Assembly: GCA_019321725.1 (NCBI GenBank)
Contig: CM033105.1
Span: forward strand, 10,925,632 to 10,989,631
Source of the DNA: Paulownia fortunei
Lineage: Eukaryota; Streptophyta; Magnoliopsida; Lamiales; Paulowniaceae
DNA: 64,000 bases
Reading direction: 5' to 3'
Position numbers and translations under genes: made by a program. Below the pieces are notes generated by a model. That model made no database searches. It worked only from the letters and a program-made list of their open reading frames with translations, and was not told where the DNA came from. Shown in pieces: positions 6,775 to 54,250 of this stretch. The stretch's first letter is position 1. Each line of letters begins with the position of its first letter.

Positions 6775-6799
6775 TATTTTATATTTATCTTTTTCAACA

Positions 6800-7540
6800 A
6801 TCTGTATTTGTCAAAATCCAGATTTTAAATCAAATTTAGAATTAATAACACATCATGAATTCTTTTTAAAAGATTATATCTATTGGGGATAGGATATCTA
6901 ATCCAATGTAAGACTTTATTTAATAGTTTGTAGTTATTACTAATGTGGGAGTTCCTCTTTCAATTTTTGAATTTTTATTCACATGAAAGACAACACAACT
7001 CCATGGAGAATAACTTTTCCTGATAATATTTTTGTTTAAGAGACTTCCAATCTCTTTTTTACAGTATTCAACATGTTCCTTGTTCATTTGAATAAGACCA
7101 ACGTATTTTCTTTTCATCAAAACCTTTTTCATAAGTTAATTCAATAATATATTTGTTTCTGTTCCAGAAAGCATTAGGCAAATCATTACAGACTCTAGAA
7201 ATAAGAGTTTGTTCAGTATTTTTAATTAATTATTGTAAGGAAGTATTTTTTGAATTGTTTTTCAACATTATTGATTTTTATTTCTTCTTTTAAAAAATTG
7301 ATTTGATTTTCTTTTAAAATCATTTGTTCTTTTAGCAAAGTAATTTCCTTTGTCTGAGGATTTGAAATAAATTTAAACACAATAGTTTGACCATTAATAT
7401 CACAAGAAATACCTTCGGTATTAACATTCATTGGCTGTATTAAATTTAATAAGGGTGTGCCAAGAATGACATTTTGTAAAAGGTTTTTGACCAAAACAAA
7501 TTTTGTTTTTAAACAGATACCTTGAGCAGAGTTTATTCAC
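6800..7540 (-). pseudogene. Pararetrovirus protease/RT fragment, copy A
   Basis: The frame at 7222-7494 carries the C-terminal half of the viral aspartic protease (an 'ILGTP' flap-distal motif) followed by a lysine/glutamate-rich linker. The frame at 6920-7132 is the N-terminal RT segment with 'SPWSC' and 'IERGTP' motifs typical of Caulimoviridae. The copy ends at about 6775, before the RT active site, so it is a truncated duplicate of copy B. Confidence 0.75.
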
Positions 7541-8619: not shown

Positions 8620-9320
8620 GCACATAAAACTAATCCAGTTTTATCTACAACTTGTAAGAACACATTTAAATGTTTGAAGTGTTGTTCAACATTTTTTGAA
8701 AATATTAAAATATAATCTATATAGACTATTACAAAGTCTAAATAAGGAGTAAATATATCATTCATAACAAGACAAATATAATATATTTGCTATATAATTT
8801 GCTTCAATTCCACCAAACTCAATCAAATTCAAAAGGTGCATTTTTCTAACCAAAAGGCATAACATTCCATTCGAAATGTCCGAAAAGGACAATGAATTCA
8901 GTTTTATATTTATCATTTTTAGCAATCTGTATTTGCCAAAATTCAGATTTTAAATCGAATTTAGAATTAGGAATTCTTTTTAAAAGATTATTTTTATTAG
9001 GGATAGGATATCTAATCCATTGTAAGACTTTATTTAATGGTCTATAGTCCGTTACTAATCTAGGAGTTTCTCTTTCAATTTTTGAATTTTATTCATATAA
9101 AACGCAGCACAACTCCATGGAGAATAACTTTTCCTAATAATATTTTTGTTTTAATAGACTTTCAATCTCTTTTTTACAGTATTCAGCAAGTTCCTTGTTC
9201 ATTTGAATAGGTCTAGCCTTAGTGGGTATTTTCTTTTCATCAAAACCTTTTTTATAAAGCAATTCAACAATATGTTTCTTTTTGTTCCAGAAAGCATTAG
9301 GCAAATCATTGCAGAGTACA
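8620..9320 (-). pseudogene. Pararetrovirus reverse transcriptase, copy B (active site mutated)
   Basis: The N-terminal segment at 9060-9230 matches copy A at 6930-7120. Further on, the catalytic box at 8712-8723 reads Y-I-D-Y instead of Y-I-D-D: the second catalytic aspartate (8712-8714) is a tyrosine codon. Several stops also interrupt the frame, so no active polymerase could be made. Confidence 0.75.
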
Positions 9321-9529
9321 GAAATAGGAGTTTGTTTAATATTTTTGATTTTTTCTTGTAAGGAAGGTTTTTTTTTTAATTGTTTTCAACATTATTAATT
9401 TTTATTTCTTCTTTTAGAAAAAAATGATTTGATATTCTTTTGAAATCATTTATTCTTTTAGCAAAGTAATTTCCTTTATCTGAGGCTTTGAAACAAATTT
9501 AAAGAATATCACAAGAAATACCTTCGGTA

Positions 9530-9900
9530 TTAACTAAGGTATTAACATTAATTTGTTGTATTAAATTTAAGAAGGGTGTGCCAAGAATAACATTTTGTAA
9601 AAGGTTTTTGAACAAAACAAATTTTGTTTTATATAAACATTACTTAGTTTATATTTGATTTCCATTTTAGAACCTTGAGGAGAGTTTAACATTGTTTTTC
9701 CTTTTACCAAATATTTAGTTGGAATTATTCCTTATTGTATGCAGTTAATATCTGCACCACTATATACAAGAGCTACGGTTTCAGATATATATATTCATTA
9801 TTAACAATGAGAATAAGATCAACATACCATTTTTGAAATGTTATGGAATTAACCATAAAGTCATTATCAGATTCGTTATCGCTTTTTGATTTTTCAGGAT
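9530..9900 (-). pseudogene. Pararetrovirus aspartic protease, copy B (catalytic Asp lost)
   Basis: The 'ALV-x-SGAD' box lies at 9750-9773, with tyrosine at 9762-9764 where the catalytic aspartate of the D-S-G triad belongs. The downstream 'ILG' region near 9580 matches copy A at 7460. Stops occur between the blocks. Confidence 0.7.
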
Positions 9901-18449: not shown

Positions 18450-20696
18450 AATGATATTGGAGAAATACTCAAACTGCCAAAATAGCAAAATCTGTTTTGG
18501 TGTGCTGTGAAGGAGACTAAATTAGGGGAGCTAAGTCCAGTAGTTTTGGAAAGAATATAACCTGGTTATCTCTGTGTATATGTTATATAAGTGTGGTAAA
18601 AAGTTGGGAGATGTTGAATACACGTGAGGGTGCCAAAACCATTAATGTCATGAAGTGCGCAAAACTGTTACCGTAGGAAAAATCTGTTTCAGTATGCTGT
18701 GAAGGGAGCTGAACTTAGGAAGCTATATCCGTGAGTTTTATCCATTATATGACATGGTTACATTTTTTTTGATGTTATATAAGTGTGATAAAAATTGGGG
18801 AGTGAATTAATATGTCTAAAGGTGTCAAAATCATCATACAAATTAATGTGGCAGCAAGAAAATGTGAAGTGGTGAATTTGTCCCATTTGTTTCATTAACA
18901 TGTTCCAGCATAGATGTGGTGCATTTGATCTCTAACATTTAGGGAAATATTGTAAGAGTTATAATACATCAATTAAGTGAGGTTAGTATACATTTAAGAT
19001 GTGGAACAAAGGTACGTAGAAGGTTGTATTCGGTTATAGTTTCTAAGTGGTAAGGTTGTTTAGTTAAATTGAGATTCAAGATCTTTATACTACATTAGGT
19101 ATAATGAACTTGTTAATTGAGGATGGTGATTGATATCTTGTATTTTTATTTTACATCTAGGGTTGGGGAGTAATACTTAAGAAACCTAGAAGTAACACAC
19201 AACCGATCAAAGGTAAGTAAAGATGTTGGGTTCGCACAATCTCGCGAAATGTATACGCAGCGGAATTTAAAATTTTTCAAAAACATAAATATATATTATA
19301 TCACATGTAATTATAACGAATCCCGGAACCCTTTCGTGATTATTCTGTTGTGTGTTTTTCTGATAGTTAAAGTAAGAAAGTTTTAAAAACTCTTACCTTG
19401 ATTTGCATTCCGGCTGATGTAGGAATTGAAACGATTCAAATTGTTATCCCTGTATGAAAGTATCTTCATGTTCTTCAATTCAAAGCCCATTTGATTGAAA
19501 TAATTCACTTCTAGGATCCCAAATATTATTCCTCTAATAGTATCTACACTTTGGATGTCTATTCGCAACCGAATCCTATGCTAGTAGTTTTCGATTAGAT
19601 AATTCTATCCCAAAACGATTTTGTTTGAAATAAGAACACACTAACAATTAGTGTTTTAGGTGTTTAATTTATTTCTTAATTCAATAATTAAATCAAGAAT
19701 TAAACTAGATAAAAGGTTGGTGAACTTTTGGAAATTGAAAGGAAATGAGGGACGAATTTTTGAAGATGAAAGAAAACTATTTTTCTTCACAAAAATCTGC
19801 AATAAAATCCCCATAAAAATGTCCAAGAACATTGCCAATAAAGGCTACCACAAGTCCTTTCCATGTAGGAATTTTGTTCCTTTCTTATCTCCAACTCTTT
19901 TAGTAAGTTTCCTTATCCCATGAGAACTTTCCCTTTTCCTTATTACCTCTTAAAAATTGAATTCCCAATTCAACTTTCTCTAAGAATTGGATTCCAAATT
20001 CAATTTCCTAATGAGCTTCCTACAAGATCATACCTAATGGGCCTAGGCCTAAGTAATCAATTAGGCCCTACTTTAATAGATCCAATCAATTAAATTAATT
20101 CATTTAATTAATTAGACTCGAGCATAGCATTTTGAGATGTATGACTTGATATTGTGGATTATTTTTTGACATGCATAATCTTTACTTACTGAGCGTTAAC
20201 TTATATAGTTTATGCATTGTAGGTGAGTCTGGTAATTCTTGATACCATGGACTTACTGGGCAAGCTGTTGGGATTCCTATAGATTTTGAGGATTACTGTG
20301 TTGCGGGCATATTCTAATTTTTACATTCATTATTATTATGTAAATTATTGACTATATATAAAGGGCTACAAGACGTAAAACGTCCTTACTTCTTTCAAAA
20401 GTAAAGGCTATTATTTTTATTTTTGAGTCTCTCGTATTATAACTTTGGAATGTCGTGTCTTATATAACTCTTGAAATTTGATAGTAAATCAGCCTGAGAA
20501 TAGCATGACTGTGATGGGTGTTGTGTTTTTATATAAATAGTGATTTTTCTATATAAAAGGTTATATGTGTGAAAACATTATTTTTCAAAGTGCTACATTT
20601 TACAAAAGTAAATATATATATACACACATGCACACACATGTACTACATTGTCAAAATTATTTCTATACCAATATCTATATTTAGTGTTGGGGGGTG
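18450..20696 (+). repeat. Tekay 5' LTR, left-truncated and interrupted
   Basis: 18450-19222 aligns with 30600-31345 of the 3' LTR (for example 'gggtgccaaaa', 'attaatgtcatgaagtg', 'tgcaaaact'). 20106-20696 aligns with about 31985-32499, including 'cttactgagcgttaact' and the 'ggtgttaca' end. The first ~1.1 kb is missing, and about 640 bp are lost around the truncated LTR insertion. The end is followed directly by gag with no visible PBS. Confidence 0.7.
19224..20105 (-). repeat. Truncated copia LTR, same family as 22928-25021
   Basis: Starts 'tgttgggttcgcacaatctc' and follows the solo LTR at 22928 through 'cggaatttaaaatttttca', 'ggctgatgtag', 'ttttcgatt' and 'taggcctaa'. It stops at about 20105, roughly 40% of the full length. 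The element strand is -, judged from the copia element at 32500-39248. Confidence 0.75.
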
Positions 20697-22927: not shown

Positions 22928-25021
22928 TGTTGGTTTCACGCGATCCCGGAAAACGTATACGCAATGGAATTTAAAATTTTTCAAAAACATAAATATACAT
23001 TACATCACATGTAATTAAAACGAATCCCAGAACCCTTTCACGATTATTCAGTTGTACGTTTTCTGATAGTTAAGTAAGAAAGTTTCAGAAACTCTTACAT
23101 TGATTTACACTCCGGCTGATGTAGGGATTGAAACGATTCAAATTGTTATCCTGAATGAAAGTATCTCCATGTTCTTCAATTCAAAACCCCTTTGATTGAA
23201 ATCTGATTCGCTTATAGGATCCCAAATGTTATCTCTCTAACGGTATCCACACCTCGGATGCCCACTTGCAACTGAATCCTATGCTAATAGTTTTCGATTC
23301 GATAATTCTATCCCAAAATAATTTTGTTTAGAATAAGAACACACTAACAATTGGTGTTTTAGGTGTTTAATTTAATTCTTAATTCAACAATTAAATTAAG
23401 AATTAAACTAGATAAAAGGTTGGTGAACTTTTGGAGATTGAAAGGAAATGAGGGACGAATTTTTGGGGATGAAAGAAAACTATTTTTTTTCACAAAAATC
23501 TGCAATTATAATCCCCATAAAAATATCCAAGAAGATTGTCAATCAAGACTATCACAAGTACTTTCTATATAGGACTCTTTTTCCTTTCTTATCTCCAACT
23601 CTTTTGATAAGTTTCCTTATCCCATAAGGACTTTTCTTTTTCCTTATTACCTCATAAAAATTGAATTCCAATTCAACTTCCTCTAGGAATTGGATTCTCA
23701 ATCCAATTTCCTAATGGGCTTTCTACAAGCCTACACCTAATGGGCCCAGGCCTAAATAATCAATTAGGTTCTACTTTAATTGATCCAATCAATTAAATTA
23801 ATTCATATAATTAATTAGGCCCATCTTACTTAATTGATCCAATCAATTAATTAAATATTCCAATTGGGATTCCTAATCCAATTAGGTCCAATCAATTAAT
23901 CTAATTAATTAATTGAATTAATTCCACACTTGAATTAATTTAACCCCATTAATTGATCACATTAATTAATCCAATACCTGGATTAATTTCTAGGCTAGAA
24001 ATAGACTTGTCCAAGTTTTGTGTGTGACCCCTCAGGTTCACTTTAAACTAGTCGTTGGCTCACAACTCTTGTGACTTAGTTGAACAATTAATTGTTCTAA
24101 TTAATTAATCCAATTAATTAATTCTCTTGAAATTAACTCATTAATTCCAAGAATCCACAAGACATGGGAAGCATCTAGTAATGTATCATGACTCCTAGTC
24201 TAAGGTGAATGTGCGAACCTATTTCAATTACGAATACTATGCAAGTATGGTCTTTCTGTCATCTAATCTCTCGATTGAACCTAGGGCATTGATATTGAGT
24301 CGAAACCCTATTAACTAAATAACTATGTTTCCATTCCTAGTAGTTTGATCCAACCTTGGCCAAGGATTTTAGAGTCAAGTATAGTGGAACACATAGGAGA
24401 TTCACCTATTCATCTAGATAGGTGACGAATTCTTTGTTGGCCACTCATTAATCTCCATACATGAAGATGTTACACCCAATATAAACCCCTTGTGATTATC
24501 ATGCAATCGGGAAATACATCAAAGTACAACATGTCATGCACAAGGTTATCATGGTGCCTCAAGTCTAAGGACTAATTTTAGCGCTATCGTAATGAGAAAA
24601 TTCCCATTCGACAATAGAATATTTCCAATTGAAAATTTTCAGATAGGGTTGTTCAGTGTACTTGTTCCCAACAAGCACCCGCATACATGCACTAGTGTTT
24701 CCATACCAATACCTATGGAATGAGGTATCCTCTTTTCGAGCCTGCATCATATGCGCAAGTTTCAACAGGATCAATGATTTTCCATTTCATTAATCCTTAA
24801 CTTGGAATGTTTTAAGATCACAATCTTAGAAGCATATTCCACGATTACCATCATATGCGCAACCATGCCCCATAGCTATGTGTGATCTAAGGATTTTATC
24901 TAATTCTTATGATGAATTTAAGATAAAGATTACCATTTAAATAATATTAATATAAATAAGAATAATTCACAAGAGTATAAGAACAACCAGAACAATTGGC
25001 ACGCCGGGCATTACTTTAACA
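22928..25021 (-). mobile_element. Solo LTR (copia), 2,094 bp, TSD AATAG
   Basis: Starts TGTTGG and ends AACA; flanked by the perfect 5-bp duplication aatag (22923-22927 and 25022-25026). It splits the RT frame exactly between 'PSKVEAI' and the continuation 'EVQSFLGLAGYYRRF'. It is homologous to the complete LTR of the copia element at 37068-39248 in the same orientation. No internal copia region is present, so LTR-LTR recombination removed it. Confidence 0.92.
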
Positions 25022-41689: not shown

Positions 41690-43384
41690 TGTGTCTCTCT
41701 AATATTTTCTGACTTGTGCAAAGCTAATAGTACTGAGAAGAAAGCAAATTATGCATTATGATTTGAGTCTATATACTAGTGCTTTTAACGTGCATCACAT
41801 GAGGCTAAGATGTAGTACTATAAAATAAGCTAGAAAGAAGCACATGAAATGTGATTTATAGCCATCTTAAGGTCTGTTCAATAATGCCAAATTGGTAACT
41901 GAATCAGATGATAATATGCTGAAATCAAAGAGAGGAATCGTTTATTTAGAAGAAAGATTTTTGCTGCATTGATCTATAACTTTGTCCTGACTATGGAAAA
42001 ACAATGGACATCAAATCCCAAACATGACATACACTTGGTGATGCAGAAATTCGATAAGTTTGTTCGCATCATATGGAAAAAAGTCAACTAGGACTGCAAT
42101 ATTGATACGGAAGAGTAGAAACTCAATATGTAGAAGCTTAAAGTCCAGCAAACGTCATCTCACCTCAGTAAAAAATGAAGCAGCAGAAGAAATGAGAGCA
42201 GTATTCACAGGAAGTGGTGCTGATGGGGATGTTCTGCTATTATCTGAAGTTGGTGTTATTGAAGAATGCGCTGATATGGTTTTATATACTACTAATACGG
42301 CCTCTTTTGGGGGACCCTAAACTCTATTTTCATTCTTATGTGAGCTTCAATGGTTTCCTAAATATGGGATTCCAAAGCAGAATTCTGACAGTTTTAGATT
42401 GACAGACAGACCTTTCCTACTTGTCTGCTTTCTTTTGGATGAGGGGACACGAGGAAGAAGAGCTAAAGTTGTGAACTGGTAAGTTGCATGCATACAAGAA
42501 GTTGGTTTCCAAAAATAAGTCGATAATTTCACCTTTTCCATGATTCCCTATGCATTATTATTGAAAAGAGTTTCAAATATTATTCTATATTCTTTGCCCA
42601 TTTCTGGTAAGGCGTTATGAGGGGAAGATGTTATTTGTGAGGTGGGTGGATATTTCACCTTCATATTCACTTACTCGAATAAAAGGAATCAAGAGATTGG
42701 GATGGATGCACGTTTGCTCGCCAATGGCGGCATATGTGGATTACATGTAAGTTGCATCTGTCCCTTTGTTGATGATGATCAGAACTGGCTTGTATGGTTC
42801 CATTTAACGTGGTTCAGGTTAATTCAAAGGAAAATACATGACCGGAGAAAAAGAAAGAAAGTAAAAACATTAAAAATGGGAATCAATTCCTTATAATGCA
42901 TCCATTGACAAATTCCATTCTTTCTTGCATAATATGGTAATATTCCTTCTCTCCGCAATAATTCAATATCCATTTGAAGATGGATGTCCACTAGCATTGT
43001 CGCGTCTCCAACTCACTCTTAAGCACGTTAGTATGCCTGCATGTTTTCTGAGATAGAGCCTTCTTTCAGGTCTATGTAACACCATCTTTTACATGCAATC
43101 AGAATTGCAATAATTCACGTTTGGGATTTCTTGGAACTCATCCCATGCATTTCATGTATTGGAGCTCACCAAGTCAAAAAATAACGTGAAAAGGTATGGT
43201 TAGTCAACAATGTGAACTGCACGAAATTGAGGAAACCAAATCCCAATTAAACAAATACTTTTTGCAATATTAGAAAAATCATACTATCATATAAGAGGAA
43301 AGTCCTGTTTCTGCTTCAGAGTAGATAGGGTATATTCTGCAGAAACTTTTCCTGTCCGACATAATCGGCTAATCCCATTGCTAT
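41690..43384. other. Upstream region of the zinc-finger gene, no other gene recognised
   Basis: Holds presumed 5' UTR and promoter DNA and then unassigned sequence. Short frames (for example 42060-42320) do not resemble any family I know. Confidence 0.4.
41769..41775 (-). promoter_or_regulatory. Possible TATA element of the zinc-finger gene
   Basis: The - strand reads 'tatatag' about 80 bp upstream of the ATG. It is the best of several AT-rich candidates; a 5' UTR intron with acceptor 'ttcttctcag' near 41735 is also possible and would place the promoter further right. Confidence 0.2.
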
Positions 43385-44079
43385 TTTTATGCACTAATTG
43401 AAGAAGGTGTATCCTAAATAACAATCTACTGCTTTTGCTTTCCTCCTCCTTACTGGATCACCTACACAAGACGCTGGAGTGACCCGGCGTAAGAACTCCG
43501 ACGCTCAGATCAGTGGATGTTTTCTCACAAAAGGTTAAAGCAAGTAGAAATATATGTATCTAAGGTATGAAAAGGTATAACCTGCAACATAAAGTGAATT
43601 CCCTTATTTATAGATATCAAACAAGGGTAAAAGATAGATTTCAAACCTTAATTTGTTGTAACAGATTACTGTGTACGTATCAACATTCTCTGATTAACCT
43701 AGAAAAGATTATGTCTTTTTCTAACCATAACCATTTCATCCTGGTTTTTCACGTGAACTTGCCGACCTGGCAATCTGCAGGTCCTTCGATGCTAGATACA
43801 CACCTCCTGCAATATGCTCAATAGGTCATGCTACTCTCACAGCTCGTGCACTAGGCTAATATATCCAACTTACCGAGTTTCCACACAACAAATGGCAGCT
43901 TTGCCTATTAACCTATACCTTAAGTCTTATGGCCCGAGCTGCATAATCTGACCTAACCTACACCACTTTGCCATTTCACTTATAGCTCGAGCTACATCGA
44001 TCTGACCTGATCTAAATCACATTAAGTTTTTTTCTCATAGCTCGATCTACACAGGTCCGACCCAACTTATACCACATCA
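43385..44079 (-). repeat. 3' LTR of the Tat element (695 bp)
   Basis: Aligns end to end with 51933-52629. In element orientation it begins TGATGTGG and ends 'gtgcataa' with the terminal CA eroded to AA. A TATA-like 'tataaataag' (- strand of 43603-43612) is shared with the other LTR. Confidence 0.88.
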
Positions 44080-44096
44080 GCTAGTCCCCCTATTCT
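44080..44096 (-). other. Polypurine tract of the Tat element
   Basis: The - strand reads 'agaatagggggactagc' immediately upstream of the 3' LTR start (TGATGTGG). Confidence 0.7.
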
Positions 44097-44326
44097 GCCT
44101 GACCTACAATCTTTGCTGGATAGACAAAGTACAAAAATATCTTGACTGCTAGGGCTGAAGTGGGTATCTCCTTTTCAAATTCCAACCCTTGGGATTTCGT
44201 GTCTATTATTAAGACTTTAATGCCTAAGTCTTTTCAACTGACTATTCTCTTTCAGCCATACACGTGTCTCTATCTTGCAATCTATGGTTAGGGCTTCTTC
44301 CGCCTCTTCAAGTACCTTCCATCCCC

Positions 44327-44334
44327 TATAAAAG
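44327..44334 (+). promoter_or_regulatory. TATA box on the antisense strand, upstream of the antisense ORF
   Basis: 'cccctataaaaggag' on the + strand is a near-ideal TATA box, 181 bp upstream of the ATG at 44508 that opens the antisense ORF. It points away from the element's own transcription direction. Confidence 0.5.
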
Positions 44335-44507
44335 GAGTTCAATCCTTCTTTTCGCCCTTCTTCTTTTCTACAGATTTCCTTCTCCGGCGACCCATTTTCT
44401 TATTCTTCTGGCAATTCCTTTCCTTTCTTCTTCAATAACCCAAGTTAGTCCTCTACTCTTGCTATTCATTTATTTCTTCATTTTTCTTTACATGCTCGGT
44501 TTATCCT

Positions 44508-44830
44508 TTGATGTCCATTTCTCCTGATTCTCCAGGCCCCCTATCATTTATTCCCCCTTTCCTTCTTCTTGGAATTTCTATCCATGAGCTAGTACGCGAA
44601 TTATCAACCCATCACCCTTCTGAAGTCAGGATGGCCAATTCGGATGACCACCCTGCTTATATTACTCACGCCACTACCCTCTCTGAAACAAGTCTAGCAA
44701 ATCTCAGGAAAAATGCAGGGATACCTGATGAATTTAATGTAGTCCTTCCAAGTCCGTGCAATAGACCTCATAATCAACTGGAGACAGGCCTCAGGTTTCC
44801 CTTGGCTCAAGCATGTCCCAACAAGCATAC
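44508..44830 (+). pseudogene. Antisense ORF of Tat element, N-terminal part
   Basis: An open frame on the + strand, opposite to gag-pol. The block 'ANLRKNAGIPDEFNVVLPSP' followed by 'ETGLRFPLA' matches the opening of the plant 'putative gypsy-type transposon' protein family (PF04195-like), known as an extra antisense ORF in Tat/Ogre elements. Its function is not known. Homology stops near 44830; the C-terminal part is displaced to 46790-47966. A 'ttctcctgattctccag' acceptor-like site lies just after the ATG. Confidence 0.6.
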
Positions 44831-45129
44831 TTATGTCAAGTATGGTTGCCAAATAAAAAATAAAAAACTCTTTCAAACGACAAACTTCCTTTTGCTACAC
44901 AAAACTAGTCTATTCAAAAATCAGGTATCCACGATATATAACACCATTTATCATATGCTGCACTTCAGTGCTGGTGCTCCTTACTTTATTTCTGTTCTCA
45001 AATTGAAAGAGAAAATGAAGCTAAATTTAAGCTTCTATTACAGAAAACACACAACAATTGCATGCTTAAAGCTCCTCCTCAATTCAACTTTTAAGGCAGG
45101 GGAATACTTCCATGTAAACCGCTCAGAGG

Positions 45130-45345
45130 TAAAGTTAACCAACTAGTCTTTCCGCCGCAGCGTGTAATAATCTTTAGGACATGCTTTATTTAAATCTCAA
45201 AAATTAATGCACATTCTCCATTTCCCTTCTGCTTTTGGGACCAAGACAACATTTGACAACCATTCTGGAAATTGGATATCTCTTATATGCCCGACCTCGA
45301 GCAATTTCTCTATCTCCTTCTCAATAATCTTATCCTTCTTAGGAC
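45130..45345 (-). pseudogene. Tat reverse transcriptase, N-terminal fragment
   Basis: On the - strand: 'IIEKEIEKLLEVGHIREIQF', 'EWLSNVVLVPKAEGKWRMCI' style blocks, then 'DLNKACPKDYY' with one stop, the usual start of the RT domain in Tat elements. The catalytic YxDD region and everything after are missing. Confidence 0.7.
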
Positions 45346-45548
45346 CAAAATATCTCTTCTTCTATTTAATATTTACATGTTGGGCCAATATTAAGGTGAT
45401 GTACTGCCACACCTGGATTCATTCCTTCCAGGTCGTGCACAATAATTGAGTTATTCTGTCTACTAACTCCGGACTCTGCTGCATGCCCATACTAGTAGTT
45501 ACTAGTTCTATATTGAGTAATTCCTCATTTGGCTGCACGTGCTCCTGC

Positions 45549-45929
45549 TCAACCGAAGGCCCTTTCACCCATTTTTTTTAATATTTTTAGTGGGGGCTCT
45601 TCTTCTACATTTTGTTCCCTTTTAGCTTTTTTCTGCTCGACTTTCTTGACAGCTTCCACATAATATTTCCTAGCTGAATGCTGATCCCCTCCCACTTCTC
45701 CTATCCCCTCATCCATAGGGAATTTTAATTTCATATGAAAAATAGACACCATTATTTGGAATGTGTTGAGTAAGGGTCTTCCCAAGATGATATTATACGT
45801 AGAAAAAGAGTCTACCACAAAAAATTTAACCATCCCAGTTTTACATATGGGCTTAGTCCCCAAGGACACTAGTAAGATGACTTGACACATGGGATCTACT
45901 ACTCCCCCGCCAAAACCAAACAAGGTCAT
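45549..45929 (-). pseudogene. Tat protease region
   Basis: A 126-codon frame with 'GFGGGVVDPMCQVILLVSLG', 'FFVVDSFSTYNIILGRPLLN' and 'STFHMKLKFP'-like wording, the C-terminal half of the Tat aspartic protease (ILGRP motif). The D-T/S-G active-site half is not visible upstream in frame. A Lys/Glu-rich linker leads to RT. Confidence 0.75.
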
Positions 45930-46379
45930 TTCTACTGGCTATAATGCTCTATCTAGATTTATCTTCTTATACGCTTCATAGAACAAGACACCAACCGAGC
46001 TACTTGTATCATCCATTACTCTAGCCACGTTAAAGTTAGCCATGGTGGCAGTGACAACTAGTGCGTCGTTATGTGGTACCTCTAATCCTCTTGCATCATG
46101 AGGTCCGAATTGAATCATAGGACCTTTGTTAATCTTATGGATCTCCTCTCTTGCATCTTTTGGGGTAGGTCAGGCATATGCTTTCCTAGCTCGATTGGAG
46201 TCCCCATCTATAGGGCCCCCTACTATTATCTAGATGAAACCCCTTAGAGCCTGAGGGTGGTTTTCTCCAAGTGTTGCCACTGCTCTTCCTTTCTTAATAT
46301 CCCTTTCTCTCTAGGTAGGTCGAGCCTTTTTCTATTCAGCCATCTCTTTCTCTTCTTCCCCCTTAACCCAATCATCCAG

Positions 46380-46630
46380 TTACCCCTTTCTTACCATCCT
46401 CTCTATCTTATCTTTTAAATGCCGACACTCCTCTATTGTATGCCCATAATCATTATGAAAAGCACAGAATAGATTAGACTTAAGCTTGGTTGGTGTTGAT
46501 GAGTGATTATAAGGCCATCTTAACCCCTTATGTTTTACATTGGCCATCAAGATATGCACCTTAGGTACTACCAGGGGGGGTAAATTGCCTGGGTTCCCCA
46601 GGTGCAGACAACAGAGGTCATTCATCCTAT
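46380..46630 (-). pseudogene. Tat gag C-terminus
   Basis: Contains 'FCAFHNDYGHTIEECRHLKD' followed by 'KIERMVRKG', the variant knuckle (CX2HX4HX4C) and helix typical of the Gag end in Tat-lineage elements. It lies directly before the protease fragment. Confidence 0.72.
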
Positions 46631-46789
46631 TTTAATTTTCTGACAAACCCTCATACTTCTTTACCATTTTTATCTAAGCCCCAAAGTTGTTTTGCTTTCT
46701 CAGCGCATAGGTATCTTTCTATTTGGCTAATCCTTATAATTCAGCATTCGACATTTACTAACTGTTACTCTTTCGCAGATCAACTGATG

Positions 46790-47966
46790 GAGTCTCGTAT
46801 AATAGTAGCTTATTGAGCTCGAAAAGTAGCTAGAGGGTCAGCTCAACCCGAAGGTCAAGCTTGAGTCCCCCTGACCAGAACACCCCCGGATCAATGGCGT
46901 ATGCCCATTATCCAAGCTTCATCCTTGGCTTCTCAACGACCTCCATCTAACCCCCCACCTTCTACCATAGCTGCTGCACTTACTTCCTCCCATAGCGAGG
47001 AAAGCACCCAGCCTCTGCAGATGGTGGCAGCTTAGGCCCATCTCAACATCCTCGTTTCAATACTCTAACTTTCTTGAATACCTCTTTTTTCACCAGCAGC
47101 TCAGTATTGGAGACACGAGATGGAAAACTCTGTGCTGAATGGCTCTAGGGTATACCAAATTCCATAGATCAACATCTCTTAGGGTCTGTAGATTATGACA
47201 CTTGAGTGGGTTATCCTGTAGATCATGCTTCTAAGTTAATATTCCCTACTTCACTTATTTTTTTTTTTGTTAAAGGTTGAAAATTTTCCAAACCCTATTT
47301 TTCTTAGGCCATTTTATATCTGAGCTCCTTGATGGCCGATCTGTGATATGGATTACCTTCCTCAGAGGAGGAGGAGCTCAAGCAGCAGAATGAAGATCTG
47401 CAATAGCGGTTGCAGCGTACTCAAGTTCGCACGGCCAAGTTAGAAGCGGACCTTGAGATAGCCAAGGGTAAACAGCTTCCTTGGAGAAGAAAGTAGGAGA
47501 AGTGGAATGGGACAAGAATTGGATAGAGTATCAAATGCTGAAGGCTATTGAAGAGGCTTTTATCTCTTGAGCTAAAGGTCATGAGGCAGGGCTCCTTGCG
47601 GGCTGAGCTGAGTGGGCTCAAGAGAAAGCAAAGTTCTTGCAATCTCCAGAGTTTTTCAATCACCTGACCTCTGGGGCATTAGAATACTTGATCCACGGCT
47701 TCACACATTATCTACGTCAAGTTAAGGAGCTAGGATATATTGGCCCGGATCCAAACCTAGACCGAGTTGTCGAAAGTGTTTCTCCACTCCAAGGTGGGTC
47801 TACTCTTGCAGTTGATGTAGTCGATCCTTCAAAACCACCAGCTACGCTAACACCATCCTTGGAAGATCCTTCTGTACACTCAGCTCCTTCTCCTCCAAAT
47901 GCTATTATCCCTCAAGATCTCCCGAATGATCCTGCTATCGATGTTGGAGATGATAGCTCTTCCTAA
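46790..47966 (+). pseudogene. Antisense ORF of Tat element, C-terminal part
   Basis: On the + strand: a broken, Pro/Ser-rich stretch (46870-47035), a Glu/Gln-rich coiled-coil region (about 47360-47630, with stops), then an open frame from 47637 with 'LQSPEFFNHLTSGALEYLIHGF' and an acidic, Pro-rich tail ending at 47966. The 'SPEF..FL..GF' tail is typical of the antisense ORF family in Tat/Ogre elements. It is separated from its N-part (44508-44830) by a gag-PR-RT block. Confidence 0.6.
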
Positions 47967-48284
47967 ATAGAAAATCCACATGATAAGGGTATTGTTCTAG
48001 AGGCCCTCAATGTTTCTGATTATGTGTAGAGTAATCTTGTAAATCTTGTAACAATTTTTCAATAATATTTTTATTTTACCTTTATCACCTTCTTTAAATT
48101 CTGGTTTATCTTTCCAACACCTACAACCTTACAAGTAATTTTCAATAATGAACAATGAATCAAACAAGCACTTCTTATTCAGGCTTTACATCTCTTGTTC
48201 TCAAGAAGTTTTGGTTTCGTAATCGAGTTATGTGTGACCTACCCAAGTTATTTTTTCTTATTTCTAAAAATTGCTTAAAAATAG

Positions 48285-48595
48285 ATGATCCAACTCAACT
48301 GGTCTTGCCTTAGGATTTTTTCTAAATTATTCCCCAATGAGGTCAGTCTCTGCAAACCCTCCAAGGAACCTAAGAAGATCCAGCTCAGTTGGCCTTACCT
48401 TAGGATTTTCTTTCTGAATCATTCCCCAAGGAGGTCGGTCTATACTAACCCTCCAAGGAACCTGAGGAGGTCCAGCTCAACTGGCCTTGCCTTAGGAATT
48501 TTTTTCTAAATCATTTTCCAAGGAGGTCGGTCTCTGCGAACCTTCCAAGAAACCTAAAGAGGTCCAGCTCAGCTGGCTTTGCCTTAGGATTTTTT
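48285..48595. repeat. Minisatellite, about 3.5 units of 90-92 bp
   Basis: Units start near 48287, 48377, 48469 and 48561. Each carries 'gatccagctcaactggcctt', 'gccttaggattttttctaaa', and 'ccaaggaggtcggtct', with a few substitutions between units. It lies between integrase and the antisense ORF, where Tat/Ogre elements often hold tandem repeats. Confidence 0.9.
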
Positions 48596-48639
48596 TCTCT
48601 TCCCGTCTATATAATGGTTCAAGAATTCATTTCATTTCA

Positions 48640-49850
48640 TTTATAAAATTCCAAGATTATACATAGAATTCTTCAAGTTGCAAACATTCCATAGCCTTGG
48701 TATCTTTTTTCCCTGCTCATCCTCTAGGTCATATGCGTCTCCAGCTATATCTTTAGTCATCTTGTAGGGTCCTTCCCAATTTGCCTCTAACTTGCCAATT
48801 TATTTCAAAGCATCTACTCACCGTAGCACTAAATCCTTGAACTGGAAATTTCTTTTCTTGCCTTCCGAGAGTACCCTACCTGAATTCTACTTTTGTACAT
48901 TTCTATCCAAATATATGCCCTTTCTCTTTTTTCATCGATCTTGTCAAATGCTTCCTCATGATCTCATTGTTTTGTTTCTCATCAAAGCTTTGAATTTGGT
49001 AGGTTTCCATCCCAATCTTGATAGGTATAACAACTTCTGATTCATATACTAAACTGAATGGAGTTTCTCCTATTATAGTTCTTGGTGTTGTATGATATAC
49101 CCATAGGACTGAGTGTAGCTCATCCACCCAACCACCTTCAGCTCTGTCCAGCCTGGTTTTGATCCCTTGCAAAATTATTTGGTTGGTTACCTCGACTTGC
49201 CCATTAGCTTGGGTATGGGCTACTGAAGTAAAATGTTGGATGATTTTCATTTTAGTGCACCAGCTCTGGACTTTCTTCCCTTGGAACTGGGTGCATTATC
49301 CGATACCAGGTCACGCGGTGCCATGCGGCATCCCATATCTACATACTATGTTCCCCCACAGAAAATTCATGACCTGTGACTCTGTAGTCTTAGCTATAGG
49401 CTCAGCTTCTACCCACTTACTGAAGTAATCTACTGCCACTATCAAGAATATCCTTTGCCCTGATGCTAGGGGGAAAGGTCCAACAATATAAATTCCCCAT
49501 TAGAGAATAGACAGGTGAGCTCATGACTTTTAGTTCTTCTGTTGGCTTATGTATAAAAGGAGCGTGTTTCTGGAATTTTTCATAGGTTTTGACCAGATGC
49601 TCTGCATATTCCTTTAGTGAAGGCCAGAAGTACCCAGCTCTTGTTGCCTTAGAAGCCAATGTGCGACCTCCACCATAGCTTCCGCATCCTCCCTCATGAA
49701 TTTCTCATAATACATAGCTCCCTCTTATTGTGATAAACATCTCAAGTATGGTGTAGAAAATGCTCGTTTATATAATTAACCATCAATAATGGAAAATCTA
49801 GTAACTCATACCTGAAATCAAGCTGCTTCTCTTTTATTCTGAGGTAGTTT
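48640..49850 (-). pseudogene. Tat integrase
   Basis: On the - strand: a linker with 'FSIIDG' and 'LYKRAFSTPYLRCL', a damaged HHCC region, 'RAGYFWPSLKEYAEHLVKTY', 'HAPFIHKPTEELKVMSSP', then the core near 49250-48903 ('IIQHFTSVAHTQANGQVEVT', 'GETPFSLVYESEVVIPIKIG') and a C-terminal 'NWEGPYKMTKDI'-like block near 48770. Stops and frameshifts are frequent. It begins directly at the junction with the UBP16-like segment. Confidence 0.82.
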
Positions 49851-49855
49851 CCCTT

Positions 49856-51402
49856 CTGACATCAGCTGGCTCAATTCTACCGGTTCGACCTTAGTATCAT
49901 CTACCCTGAGCTAGTTCCCTTACAGATCTTTCACCTATGAGATTTAATGATCGAAAAAAGATACATTGGATGTATCCAAGTGCACAACAACAACATGAAG
50001 CATGTAAAGCGGAGGTATGTCATCAGTCCCAGTCATAAATGGAATCATATCTAGCATTTTCAAAAAAGTGATGCATTTATTAATCTTGCCATAATTTCCC
50101 TCCTAAAATCTCTTCAAGACAATAGTCAAGATATTTGGAGCCTCTTGTATGTTCAATTGCTTCTGTGCTTGAACATATACAACACACCTTGCACATCTAT
50201 ACATGTTCTCCCCATCAAGATCTTCTAAACTAGTGAACTGCATTAGTGCATCCTCCAATGACTCAATCCAACCAAATATCTCCAGGGTAAGATCCATTAT
50301 ATTCTCATACCACTCTGACTCATGGTAACATCTCAAAAATTTAACCTCTGATCTAAGGCATCCTCTAAATGTATGTTGTATAAAAGTCATATCCTGCAAC
50401 CTAGGATTAACAACATTTTCACCACCGAAACCTTCCAAGCATATGGATTGCATTGAGGCCACAAGAAGCTTTAAAAACTCATGAGCATCTTCCTGACTTC
50501 CATCACTAATCTGGGAATTGAGACTTCTAATATACATAAGAAGATTCACAAGTGATAGAGGACTCCCACTTTCTCTCAGCATCATTACAAGCAGCTCAAG
50601 TTCACACATGAGGCACTAATCTTTGGCATATCCAGGTCTAGAATGTGATTAACGAAGAAAATTAATGATCAGAGGCCTTTTGCATGTTAGACAATGCAAT
50701 ACAACATTGGCATAATAACTATTCCCATAATTTACAAGTCCTCTAGGTGTTACATTGAAAACTTCAAATTGAAAACACTTTATAAATTCTTCATAGGGAA
50801 AAATCATCTTCAATTTTCTTCACCTATTGGCACTATCTTCCAATTATTGCTGATGGTCAATTTTTGCTGACTTCTTCATACCCATCATCCTCATGGTTCC
50901 CAGGTTTTCAACCCTATTACTTTCCTGTAAATGGATGTTGTCCTTTATTTTAGCAACTCTTGACTTATTTGCAGTTTGAACTTTTATATTTGTATTTGAA
51001 GACAGTAGTTCTTTAGATGCTTTCACCCTTGATTTTGGAGATTTATGCAGTTTAATTCCATTAGAAATGTGAAATAATCATTGATTTGTTACTCCTTTTC
51101 ATTGAAGTTCTTTCAGAAGACCAATTCAAGCCTTTTGTTTTATCACTGCAGGGGATTCTTTTTTCTGAGCTAAGCATTCTTCTTTTATCAAGTCCATTCG
51201 AGTGTCATACGCATTTGTGCCACTGATTGCTGTAGTTGATGGGTTTAAAATCCCACAATTATGTCCACTATCAAATGCATTTAAACTTTCTCTTCCAGTC
51301 ATGTCACTCTCAAGCAAGGTACCTCTTAGATCACCATCTCCATTCTTAAAATCACCTTCTCTCAAATAAGCATCTCTTGATGACTGAGAACCAATCCCAG
51401 AG
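49856..51402 (-). pseudogene. UBP16: UBP16-type ubiquitin-specific protease, captured intronless copy, catalytic Cys lost
   Basis: On the - strand this reads as a plant ubiquitin carboxyl-terminal hydrolase of the UBP16/18/19 group, which removes ubiquitin from proteins. A linker (51402-50830) leads into the USP domain: 'FPYEEFIKCFQFEVF', the Cys box 'GLVNYGNSYYAN' (50706-50741), then 'CELELLVMMLRESGSPLS', 'GSQEDAHEFLKLLVASMQSI', 'ENIMDLTLEIFG', 'ENMYRCARC', 'EAPNILTIVLKRF', 'VVVHLDTSNVSFFDH' (the His box, followed by stops) and a VDD block. The catalytic cysteine is tyrosine (codon 50715-50717) and stops occur at 50103, near 49935 and elsewhere. UBP genes of this type have many introns; none is seen, so the copy came from spliced RNA. 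It lies exactly between gag and integrase of a Tat element. The N-terminal MYND finger is absent. Confidence 0.87.
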
Positions 51403-51887
51403 ACTTCCTCAGAAAAAGGAATTCCTCTTTTTGCAACCATATTCTTTCCCGCCATTTTCATCTTCACCTCTTTCAACTCATTATGTAAATCTTTTAGCTT
51501 TTTCGACACATCTGGTTCTTTCATTAGTGTTTTACCGTGGCATTCTCTTGTATGACTCTCTTCTGGCCTTTTGGGGCAGAGTTGCTTTTCCAGTACCTCT
51601 GGTGGTGGTGGATTAGCCTCTCTCCTCCTTAAGGTTGCATCCACCACGGTAGTGATCAAACTTGCTAATTGCTCTATAGTAAGTTGGCCGGTATTTTCTA
51701 CTCCAAATTTCGAAGCCAAATTTACACAAGCTACCTCCATGGTTTGAAGTGGTGGAACTCCAGGTGTTACTGGTGGTGGGCTATTATTTTCTCTCCAATC
51801 CTGGACTTTTGGGCCATGATTACACCAGACAATTGGTGGTGGAGCTTCATCGGATGTTCCTTCACCTGGGATTCCTTTTCTTGCCAT
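51402..51887 (-). CDS. Tat gag N-terminus, fused in frame to UBP16-like sequence
   Basis: The ATG at 51887 opens 'MARKGIPGEGTSDEAPPPIV', followed by 'LTIEQLASLITTVVDATLRR', a Lys/Glu-rich helix and 'KRGIPFSEEV', the usual Tat Gag N-terminal layout ahead of the capsid core. At about 51402 Gag homology stops and UBP16-like sequence continues in the same frame to a stop at 51126, giving a 253-codon chimeric ORF (Gag about 1-162, UBP-derived about 163-253). It is open, but the rest of the element is broken, so any product would be a truncated fusion. Confidence 0.7.
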
Positions 51888-51912
51888 TTATCATGCCTTA
51901 ACTCATAAATCC

Positions 51913-51930
51913 TCCCATAGACGGCGCCAA
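51913..51930 (-). other. Primer binding site of the Tat element
   Basis: The - strand reads TTGGCGCCGTCTATGGGA, two bases inside the 5' LTR. Tat elements commonly carry a 'TGGCGCCGTC' PBS of this kind. The exact priming tRNA was not determined. Confidence 0.7.
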
Positions 51931-51932
51931 CT

Positions 51933-52629
51933 TGTTATGCACCGATTGAAGAAGGAGCACCCCAAGTAACAATCTACTGCTTATGCTTTCCTCCTCCTTG
52001 TTGGATCACCTGCACAAAATGCTAGAGTAACCCGACATAAGAACTTTGACACTCAAGTCAGTGGATGTTTCCTCACAGAAGGTGAAAACAAGTAGAAATA
52101 TATATATCTAAGGTATAAAAAAGTGTAACCTGTAACATAAAGTGAATTTTCTTATTTATAGATACCAAACAAGGGTAAAAGAGAGATTTCATACCTTAAT
52201 TTGTTATAACAGATTACTGTACATGTATCCACGTTCTCTGATTTACCTCAGAAAAGATTCCCTATCATTTTCTAATCATAATCGTTTCATCCTGATTTTC
52301 CACGTGAACCTGCCCAACCTGGTGATCTGCAGGTCCTCCGATGCTAGATACACACTTCCTGCAATAGGCTCAACAGGTCATGCCACTCTTACAGCTCGCA
52401 CACCAGGCTAACAGATCCACTTACCGAGTTTCCACACAACAAATGACAGCTTTGCCAATTAACCTATATCCTAAGCCTTATGGCCCAAGCAGTATAATTT
52501 GACCTGACCTACACCACTTTAGTATTTCACTTATAGCCTGAGCTATATCGGTCCAACCTGACCTACATCACATTAATCTTTTGCTCATAGCCCGAACTAC
52601 ATAGGTCTGACCTAACCTATACCACATCA
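51933..52629 (-). repeat. 5' LTR of the Tat element (697 bp)
   Basis: Begins TG and ends CA in both readings (TGTTATGC at 51933, ATCA at 52629). It aligns with 43385-44079 throughout. A TATA-like 'tataaataag' lies on the - strand of 52151-52160, the expected element promoter. Confidence 0.88.
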
Positions 52630-53103: not shown

Positions 53104-54250
53104 GGGTTAAATACTCTTGTACTATTGATTTTGTATCAATCACCCCCCTATACTATTAAAATCTTCAAATATCTCTTTAAACTAATAAAAATTATATTAA
53201 TAAACAAAAATACCCTTGAACTAAATAAAATGTTAAATCTCATATTTTGCACCCTCTAATTAATTTGATCCCATATTTTAATTAACTCTAATTTTATTAA
53301 ATAAATAAATCTACAATTAAATTTAAAATAAATAAATAACAAAATATAATTTTAATTGCATAGAGAAGAGCTATTATTTTTTTAAAAATATATCACATAA
53401 ATTTATATTACTACCATTTTAAATATATTGCTTTAATAAGTAATAAAATTTATGTCAACTTAGTTGATGTTATTTAATGGTATAACTATTTCCACGTGTA
53501 GGTCAAACATATTAACTAATTTAACTTCAATGTGTAGTAATTTATTTTTGAAAGAATTACAAAATATAAAACATAAATATCTTATAATACTCCCCTGACA
53601 ATTAAATATCAATTAATTTGATCCCAAATTCTATTTAGCACTAATTTTCATTTTTGTTTTTCACTCGAAAGTTCTTAATTACATTAATATACTTTATAAT
53701 TTTTTTTATTTTTATTTTCTAATTTTTATTTCCCTTTCTATATAAGTAACTACATGTTGAAATTAGATTTGTTAATATATTTGAGTTGCACATGCACACC
53801 TTACATAATAGAATTATATATACCATTAAGTAATATCCATTTATTTAGCTTTAAATTTATTACTTACTTATTAAAGCTATATATCTAATTTGATAGTAAT
53901 ATAAATTTACGTGACCTAATTTTTTGAATTTAATGTGTCTTCTATGTAACATTAAAGTTATATTTTGCTATTTATTTATTTTAAATTTAATTACAAATTT
54001 CTTTATTTAATAAATTAGAGTTGAATAAAATTTGAGGTCAAATTGATTGACATTTAATTATAGAGGGGGCAAAATTCTATATAATTTATAATAGAGGAAA
54101 AAAAGTTAATTTAATATTTTATAATTCAGGGGTATTGTGGTCCATCAATATAATTTTTGTTGGTTTAGTAGGGTATATAAAGATTTTATTTGTAGAAGGG
54201 GATATTTGATACAAAACCAATAGTATAAAGGGGTAAAATGTATTTAAACC
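53104..54250. mobile_element. Mutator-like inverted-repeat element, 1,147 bp
   Basis: The left end ('gggttaaatac', 'tactattgattttgtatcaa', 'taataaaaattatattaat', 'aaaatacccttgaac') is an imperfect inverted copy of the right end over about 120 bp. Flanks 53095-53103 (ttatgtata) and 54251-54259 (ttatatata) agree at 8 of 9 positions, although the right side is in TA microsatellite sequence. No transposase; non-autonomous. Confidence 0.65.

What the first reader, a model, noticed from the sequence alone, without database searches (positions are those of the whole stretch)
49856..51887. LTR retrotransposon with a captured UBP16-type deubiquitinase cDNA fused in frame to gag
The sequence shows a Tat gag N-terminus that at about 51402 becomes an intronless USP gene, which at about 49856 becomes integrase, all on one strand and all between two homologous LTRs. 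The absence of introns argues for capture from spliced RNA during reverse transcription. The resulting 253-codon gag-UBP ORF is open. This is gene transduction by a plant LTR element, much rarer than Pack-MULE capture, and the cargo is a ubiquitin-system protease.
Basis: partly seen in the sequence, partly recalled or inferred. Interest (0 to 1): 0.9.

Follow-up and report, generated by a model that had tools for sequence, protein, structure and literature searches.

The report
Retrotransposon that copied a host mRNA
An old, decayed jumping element in a Paulownia genome carries two pieces of one spliced host messenger RNA (for a ubiquitin-removing enzyme), joined at short matching sequences, which makes it a clear fossil of reverse transcriptase hopping between RNA templates; the captured gene itself is dead.

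Summary
The window lies in a 509-Mb genome that matches Paulownia fortunei. Between two LTRs (85% identical), 49852-51411 copies codons 221-739 of a host UBP15-type deubiquitinase gene. The donor gene (contig C17) matches in 11 exon blocks (85-96% identity); all 10 GT..AG introns between them are missing from the copy, so spliced mRNA was copied. Between the two captures lie integrase, the 3' region and a displaced gag-protease-RT block. Each of the five internal joins lies in 6-10 bp shared exactly with at least one relative of each partner. Copy-donor divergence (K 0.077) is close to half the LTR-LTR divergence (0.158), so capture is about as old as the insertion. The copy decayed without selection: 9 stops, 2 frameshifts, catalytic Cys lost, C>T bias at CG and CHG. 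No other copy with the cargo was found. The 253-codon ORF holds none of the catalytic domain. Most likely: microhomology-guided template switching between element RNA and a co-packaged UBP15 mRNA. New member of a known kind.

The parts
51933..52629 (-). 5' LTR of the element
   Evidence: 85.4% identical to 43384-44079; best other genomic match of the right LTR is the left LTR (40 scored of 537 candidates); sisters in a tree with 23 relatives, support 0.77
51911..51930 (-). primer-binding-site-like stretch just inside the 5' LTR
   Evidence: sequence; the reading as a PBS is from recall of plant Gypsy elements
51402..51887 (-). gag N-terminus (Tat/Retand type)
   Evidence: 61-62% to Paulownia polyproteins P0121/P0122; 39 other genomic matches scored
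51403..51412 (-). junction J1, TGAGGAAGT(C) shared by gag relatives and donor
   Evidence: exact in 14 of 19 gag relatives printed
49852..51411 (-). captured UBP15 cDNA piece A, codons 221-739 of donor, 10 introns removed
49852..49857 (-). junction J2, AGAAGG shared by donor and pol relatives
   Evidence: exact in 4 of 19 pol relatives printed
48695..49857 (-). end of RNase H linker and integrase, degraded
   Evidence: P0124 and P0122 alignments
48283..48598 (.). [quoted passage not shown]
   Evidence: repeated in relatives
46659..48283 (-). pol-3'LTR region with the remains of an antisense ORF (on +)
   Evidence: 46659 to at most 47168 matched by L064, L069, L070, L074, L075 and 47809 upward by L076; 47168-47809 has no match among the loci in hand
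46659..46666 (-). junction J3, TGGTAAAG shared by 3' region and gag relatives
   Evidence: exact in 2 of 5 3'-region relatives and 5 of 8 gag relatives printed
45122..46666 (-). displaced gag (C-terminal) - protease - start of RT block
45122..45133 (-). junction J4, TTTACCTCTGAG (donor) against TCTACCTCAGAG (the one RT relative at hand, L059)
44794..45133 (-). captured UBP15 cDNA piece B: 5'UTR exon joined to the exon with ATG and codons MLEPRET
44794..44801 (-). junction J5, GGGAAACC shared by donor and native 3' region
   Evidence: exact in 3 of 5 3'-region relatives
44080..44801 (-). 3' end of the internal region with the antisense ORF's N-terminal part (on +)
   Evidence: matches L064, L069, L070, L074, L075; recognised as this ORF from recall
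43384..44079 (-). 3' LTR of the element

Best explanation
A Retand-like (Tat, Ty3/Gypsy) LTR element was reverse-transcribed in a particle that also held a spliced host UBP15 mRNA. While copying toward the RNA 5' ends, the reverse transcriptase changed template five times at 6-10 bp matches. The order was: element 3' region; UBP15 mRNA from near its start codon back through its 5'UTR; element RT-protease-gag; element 3' region and integrase; UBP15 mRNA from codon 739 to 221; element gag and 5' LTR. The DNA integrated on contig C1, was probably methylated, and has decayed without selection since. Shown: spliced origin, the donor, order and sense of all pieces, shared bases at the joins, like ages, decay, no other cargo copy found. 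Inferred: co-packaging, one particle, a single cycle, methylation. The cargo encodes no enzyme; a role as a small-RNA source against UBP15 is possible but untested. The confidence given is for capture by template switching with a UBP15 mRNA; for all five switches in one cycle I would say 0.55 to 0.6.
For: A search with 50100-51400 (1301 of the 1560 bases of piece A) found the window, a gene on C17 and a paralog on C7 (3 of 3 candidates scored). 11 exon blocks and 10 introns of 72-453 bp, each with exactly one GT..AG cut that keeps the copy continuous. Piece B matches only window, C17 and C7 (4 of 4 candidates) and lacks a further GT..AG intron of about 2.39 kb. All three inserted blocks are in sense with gag-pol. 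Shared bases at the joins: J1 9-10, J2 6, J3 8, J4 6 (10 of 12 with mismatches), J5 8; a random join between one gag locus and the UBP stretch reaches 6 or more with P 0.002 and 8 or more with 0.00014. Copy-donor K2P 0.0765 against LTR-LTR 0.158, half 0.079. Piece B differs at 10 of 150 in its first exon and 7 of 167 aligned, with 26 gapped positions, in its second. Polarised by the paralog: 85 changes on the copy lineage, 14 on the donor's, 10 ambiguous, in 1512 sites. Synonymous/nonsynonymous/stop 33/70/9 against 28.7/77.0/6.2 expected without selection. C>T or G>A at CG 13/40, CHG 23/110, CHH 36/480; A/T sites changed 25/923.
Against: No target-site duplication was found, so the two LTRs are tied only by being each other's nearest and by weak tree support (0.77). 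The polarised copy-lineage divergence (85 to 95 of 1512, 0.056-0.063) is a little below half the LTR p-distance (0.069, from 96 of 692); within sampling error, but it would also fit a capture somewhat after the LTRs began to diverge. J4 rests on one RT relative with two mismatches in 12 bp. The shared stretches are exact only with some relatives (J1 14 of 19, J2 4 of 19, J3 2 of 5 and 5 of 8, J5 3 of 5), and L069/L070 are near-identical copies. Searches for other copies with J3 or J4 did not complete, so a parent already mosaic for the gag-RT block is not excluded. The genome search skips very common words, so absence of other cargo copies is strong but not absolute.
Confidence: 0.85

Rival explanations
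1. The same template switching but over two or more retrotransposition cycles: one cycle made the mosaic with the displaced gag-RT block and the UBP 5' end, another added the UBP middle part (or the reverse). This overlaps the best explanation and differs only in the number of cycles.
For: Mosaic copies exist in the family: in L015 integrase sequence is joined directly to gag. J3 and J4 could not be searched genome-wide.
Against: Both UBP pieces show like divergence from the donor (112 of 1556; 10 of 150) close to half the LTR divergence. No other copy carries either UBP piece. Of the loci in hand, 5 have the 3' side of J3 and 18 the gag side, none both.
Confidence: 0.25
2. A LINE-made processed UBP15 pseudogene inserted into an existing element.
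For: The copy is intronless.
Against: Two separate pieces of one mRNA in permuted order, each ending inside transcript sequence, so no poly(A) tail; the native gag-to-RNase H stretch (P0122 residues 163-1241) is missing at the site; joins lie in sequence shared with gag and pol, not in duplicated target.
Confidence: 0.03
3. Repair of a break in an already inserted element, with cDNA pieces as filler DNA.
For: Microhomology joins and patchwork are also typical of end-joining repair (recalled). The polarised copy-lineage divergence is slightly below half the LTR divergence.
Against: Cargo is nearly as old as the LTRs; pieces of 0.3-1.6 kb are long for filler (recalled); all three blocks are in sense, 1 in 8 by chance.
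Confidence: 0.08
4. Assembly chimera.
For: No other copy scored carries junction J1 or J2.
Against: Five joins inside one 22.8-Mb contig, no N within 30 bp of any; cargo and LTRs share one decay level, which an assembly error would not give.
Confidence: 0.02

Closest known systems
Maize Bs1 (LTR element with pieces of three host genes; PMC13317346 passages)
   Same: LTR element carrying partial host gene segments; a hybrid chimeric gene is described.
   Different: Bs1 holds segments of three genes and its chimeric gene is reported transcribed and translated; here one mRNA was used twice in permuted order and the cargo is dead.
LTR-retrotransposon retroduplication of NLR and other genes in pepper, potato, tomato, rice (PMC5664825 passages)
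   Same: Spliced mRNA copied between LTRs, multi-exon parent gene identifiable.
   Different: There the set of retroduplicated NLRs tested was under purifying selection; here two fragments decaying without selection, with the joins resolved to the base.
Complex Triticeae LTR elements made by template switching (PMC1950507 abstract)
   Same: Abnormal template switching joins two parent sequences in one daughter element.
   Different: The abstract describes LTR elements as the parents; here one template is a host mRNA.
Tripartite LINE chimeras of Magnaporthe (PMC2104539 abstract)
   Same: More than one template switch in one reverse transcription.
   Different: LINE machinery and double switches; here an LTR element with five joins.
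Retand lineage elements (PMC11963269 abstract and passages)
   Same: Long pol-3'LTR region with antisense ORF, often tandem repeats; LTR size in the range given.
   Different: Host gene capture is not described in the passages I saw.

Membership tests
Retand lineage (Tat, Ty3/Gypsy) | gag-protease-RT-RNaseH-integrase order with Tat-type gag | tested here: inconclusive
   Parts present by homology but in rearranged order because of the mosaic, and most of RT and RNase H are missing
Retand lineage (Tat, Ty3/Gypsy) | long pol-3'LTR region with antisense ORF (TRP28, PF04195) | tested here: inconclusive
   Antisense ORF pieces flank the displaced block, but Pfam gave no PF04195 hit on 44439-45143 nor any family on 47607-47963; the ORF was recognised from recall
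[quoted passage not shown]
   92-bp unit, three copies
Retand lineage (Tat, Ty3/Gypsy) | RT places in the Retand clade | not tested
   Only the first part of RT is present; no tree was made
LTR-mediated retroduplication (retrogene in an LTR element) | intron loss against a multi-exon parent | tested here: met
   11 introns removed
LTR-mediated retroduplication (retrogene in an LTR element) | copy lies between the LTRs, in sense with gag-pol | tested here: met
LTR-mediated retroduplication (retrogene in an LTR element) | target-site duplication around the LTR pair | tested here: not met
   CTAAC on the right; CCCAT, or CTAAT displaced, on the left. The LTRs differ at 96 of 692 sites, so an old duplication may have decayed. 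This touches the intactness of the pair, not the capture
LINE-made processed pseudogene | 3' poly(A) tail and flanking direct repeats | tested here: not met
   both cDNA pieces end inside transcript sequence at microhomology joins
Active UBP/USP deubiquitinase (C19) | intact Cys and His boxes in an open frame | tested here: not met
   GNSCYAN of the donor reads GNSYYAN (that this is the catalytic Cys is recalled); 12 stops in the gag frame from 51128 to 49913

The most novel reading that the evidence does not exclude
A single reverse-transcription event in one particle made five microhomology-guided switches between element RNA and one co-packaged host mRNA, visiting that mRNA twice. That would make this locus a base-resolved record of how plant Gypsy elements package cellular mRNA and choose switch sites (6-10 bp matches), and would suggest that such multi-switch mosaics are common but overlooked in this family.
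Probability: 0.55. Interest if true: 0.55.

Novelty: new member of a known kind. Interest (0 to 1): 0.5.

Why it matters
Gene capture by plant LTR elements is known from catalogues. Here the donor, the spliced template, five joins with shared bases and two matching clocks are all in one locus. This makes template switching with a co-packaged host mRNA directly testable as the route of capture, and shows one fate of such cargo: decay of the methylation type.

Tried and rejected
Rejected: LINE pseudogene, assembly chimera, functional protease cargo (see rivals and membership test). Considered and dropped: that 46731-46666 is gag; a weak protein match suggested it, but DNA relatives show it is native 3' region. 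I first took the 44794-45133 stretch for unknown sequence; it proved to be the UBP15 5' end.

Led nowhere: plasmid collection search (no match). Inference of intron positions from indels in gene models was superseded by the donor DNA. The three papers looked into (passages) gave no exon count for UBP15 itself. Pfam gave no hit on the gag ORF and only a sub-threshold integrase hit. Genome-wide searches for J3 and J4 did not complete; the one for J5 did not complete either, and J5 was then read from loci in hand.

Full report
What is there. The element lies on the minus strand between an LTR at about 51933-52629 and one at 43384-44079, which align over 700 bp at 85.4%. On the minus strand the order is 5' LTR, primer-binding-site-like stretch, gag N-terminus (51887-51402), UBP15 piece A (51411-49852), end of RNase H and integrase (49857 to about 48695), 92-bp repeats (48598-48283), 3' region with antisense ORF remains (to 46659), a displaced gag-protease-RT block (46666-45122), UBP15 piece B (45133-44794), the rest of the 3' region (44801-44080), and the 3' LTR.

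Where it comes from. The protein search gave P. fortunei Pfo_023855 as the best of 684 hits (80% identity, 100% of the query; the best 120 were listed). Apart from the generic name 'ubiquitinyl hydrolase 1', listed names that give a number say 15; names are cut short in the list. The gag and pol searches returned only P. fortunei proteins (4 and 2 hits, one of the 4 being the UBP itself). The window is C1:10925632-10989631 of a 509-Mb genome. Contig lengths of that genome (C17 17753237, C7 24734851, C11 22999143) equal those given for the P. fortunei proteins P0001, P0016/P0121 and P0122, so it is most likely that assembly.

Spliced RNA was the template. Searching the genome with 50100-51400 scored 3 of 3 candidate loci: the window, a gene on C17 and a paralog on C7. 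Against the C17 gene the copy falls into 11 exon blocks of 85-96% identity, 7 of them 92% or more. At each of the 10 boundaries exactly one cut gave GT..AG in the donor and continuity in the copy; the introns are 72-453 bp. A search with 44760-45140 (4 of 4 candidates) hit only the window, two places on C17 and one on C7. The C17 places are a 5'UTR exon (10 differences in 150) and the exon with the start codon (160 of 193 positions identical, 26 gapped), ending after the codons for MLEPRET, with an intron of about 2.39 kb removed. So one mRNA gave two pieces, and its 5' part lies downstream of its middle part.

The joins. J1: gag relatives and donor share TGAGGAAGT, exact in 14 of the 19 gag relatives printed, and TGAGGAAGTC with L020. 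The 39 other gag matches scored (40 of 147 candidates) end within 51406-51402. J2: donor and pol share AGAAGG; of the 19 pol relatives printed, L032, L033, L034 and L039 have it exactly. The 39 others scored (40 of 166) start within 49861-49850. J3: the 3' region (exact in L069/L070, not in L064, L074, L075) and gag (exact in L012, L015, L025, L056, L058 of 8 printed) share TGGTAAAG. J4: donor TTTACCTCTGAG against TCTACCTCAGAG in the one RT relative at hand, L059; 6 bp exact, 10 of 12 in all. J5: donor and native 3' region share GGGAAACC, exact in L064, L069 and L070 of five relatives. Random joins between one gag locus and the UBP stretch reach 6 bp or more with P 0.002, 8 or more with 0.00014, 9 or more with 0.00004 (one million draws). 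I picked the best-fitting relatives, so these P values flatter, but five of five joins in this range is far from chance.

Timing and fate. Copy and donor differ by K2P 0.0765 (84 transitions, 28 transversions in 1556 sites); the LTRs differ by 0.158 (78 and 18 in 692), half of which is 0.079. With the C7 paralog as outgroup, 85 changes fall on the copy, 14 on the donor and 10 are ambiguous in 1512 sites, so the copy lineage itself has 0.056-0.063, a little under half the LTR p-distance (0.069) but within sampling error. The cargo is therefore about as old as the insertion and not older. With the rate 1.3e-8 used in PMC5664825 (passage seen) that is about 6 million years, uncalibrated for Paulownia. 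Changes fit no selection (33 synonymous, 70 nonsynonymous, 9 stop; expected 28.7, 77.0, 6.2 for the same spectrum). C>T and G>A changes hit 13 of 40 CG, 23 of 110 CHG and 36 of 480 CHH sites, against 25 of 923 A/T sites changed, the pattern of deamination in methylated plant DNA (interpretation from general knowledge). GNSCYAN of the donor reads GNSYYAN. The donor's Pfam UCH domain begins at residue 442, so the 253-codon ORF, whose in-frame UBP part covers about residues 221-302, has no catalytic part.

LTR pair. In a tree of the two window LTRs and 23 fetched relatives the two are sisters with support 0.77, and each is the other's nearest at p 0.15 (40 scored of 537 candidates). No clean TSD was found. 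Both fit one old insertion but do not prove it.

Mechanism. Minus-strand synthesis runs from the RNA 3' end toward the 5' end, so the pieces read in that order: 3' region, UBP15 5' end, RT-protease-gag, 3' region and integrase, UBP15 middle, gag and LTR. Every inserted block is in sense, as RNA templates require. J3 takes the enzyme back to a place roughly 400-480 bp upstream of where it had left the 3' region (estimated from L074), as a switch to a second packaged RNA would. Co-packaging and the single cycle are inferred.

Known context. PMC13317346 (passages) reviews capture, Bs1 and abnormal template switching. PMC3726574 (abstract, passages) counts 672 rice and 1,343 sorghum genes in LTR elements. 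PMC5664825 (passages) reports retroduplicated NLR copies in LTR elements. [quoted passage not shown] PMC1950507 and PMC2104539 (abstracts) treat template switching. PMC11963269 (abstract, passages) describes Retand elements. PMC7264820 (passages) notes that transduced genes are usually in sense with gag-pol. Searches bearing on capture by LTR elements, Paulownia and ubiquitin proteases listed no title or abstract start that treats this case; only the listed rows were seen. So the kind is known; this is a new, well-resolved member.

Noticed in passing
   Followed up: yes
45122-46666: A gag-protease-RT block displaced into the 3' region of the same element.
   Followed up: partly
L015:1300-1370 (C6): Another copy of the family in which integrase sequence is joined directly to gag; the join was looked at but its shared bases were not measured.
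   Followed up: partly
L076 (C13:7437500-7445000): A relative with about 1.9 kb inserted between two integrase-region matches.
   Followed up: no
about 44775: Deletion of about 33 bp next to J5 in the antisense-ORF part, compared with relatives.
   Followed up: no
6777-7515 and 8902-9639; 19224-20115 and 22928-23818: Two further pairs of direct repeats, 84% and 88% identical, that may be LTR pairs of other elements.
   Followed up: no
53293-53443 and 53864-54014: Inverted repeat of 151 bp, 81% complementary, about 0.7 kb outside the 5' LTR.
   Followed up: no
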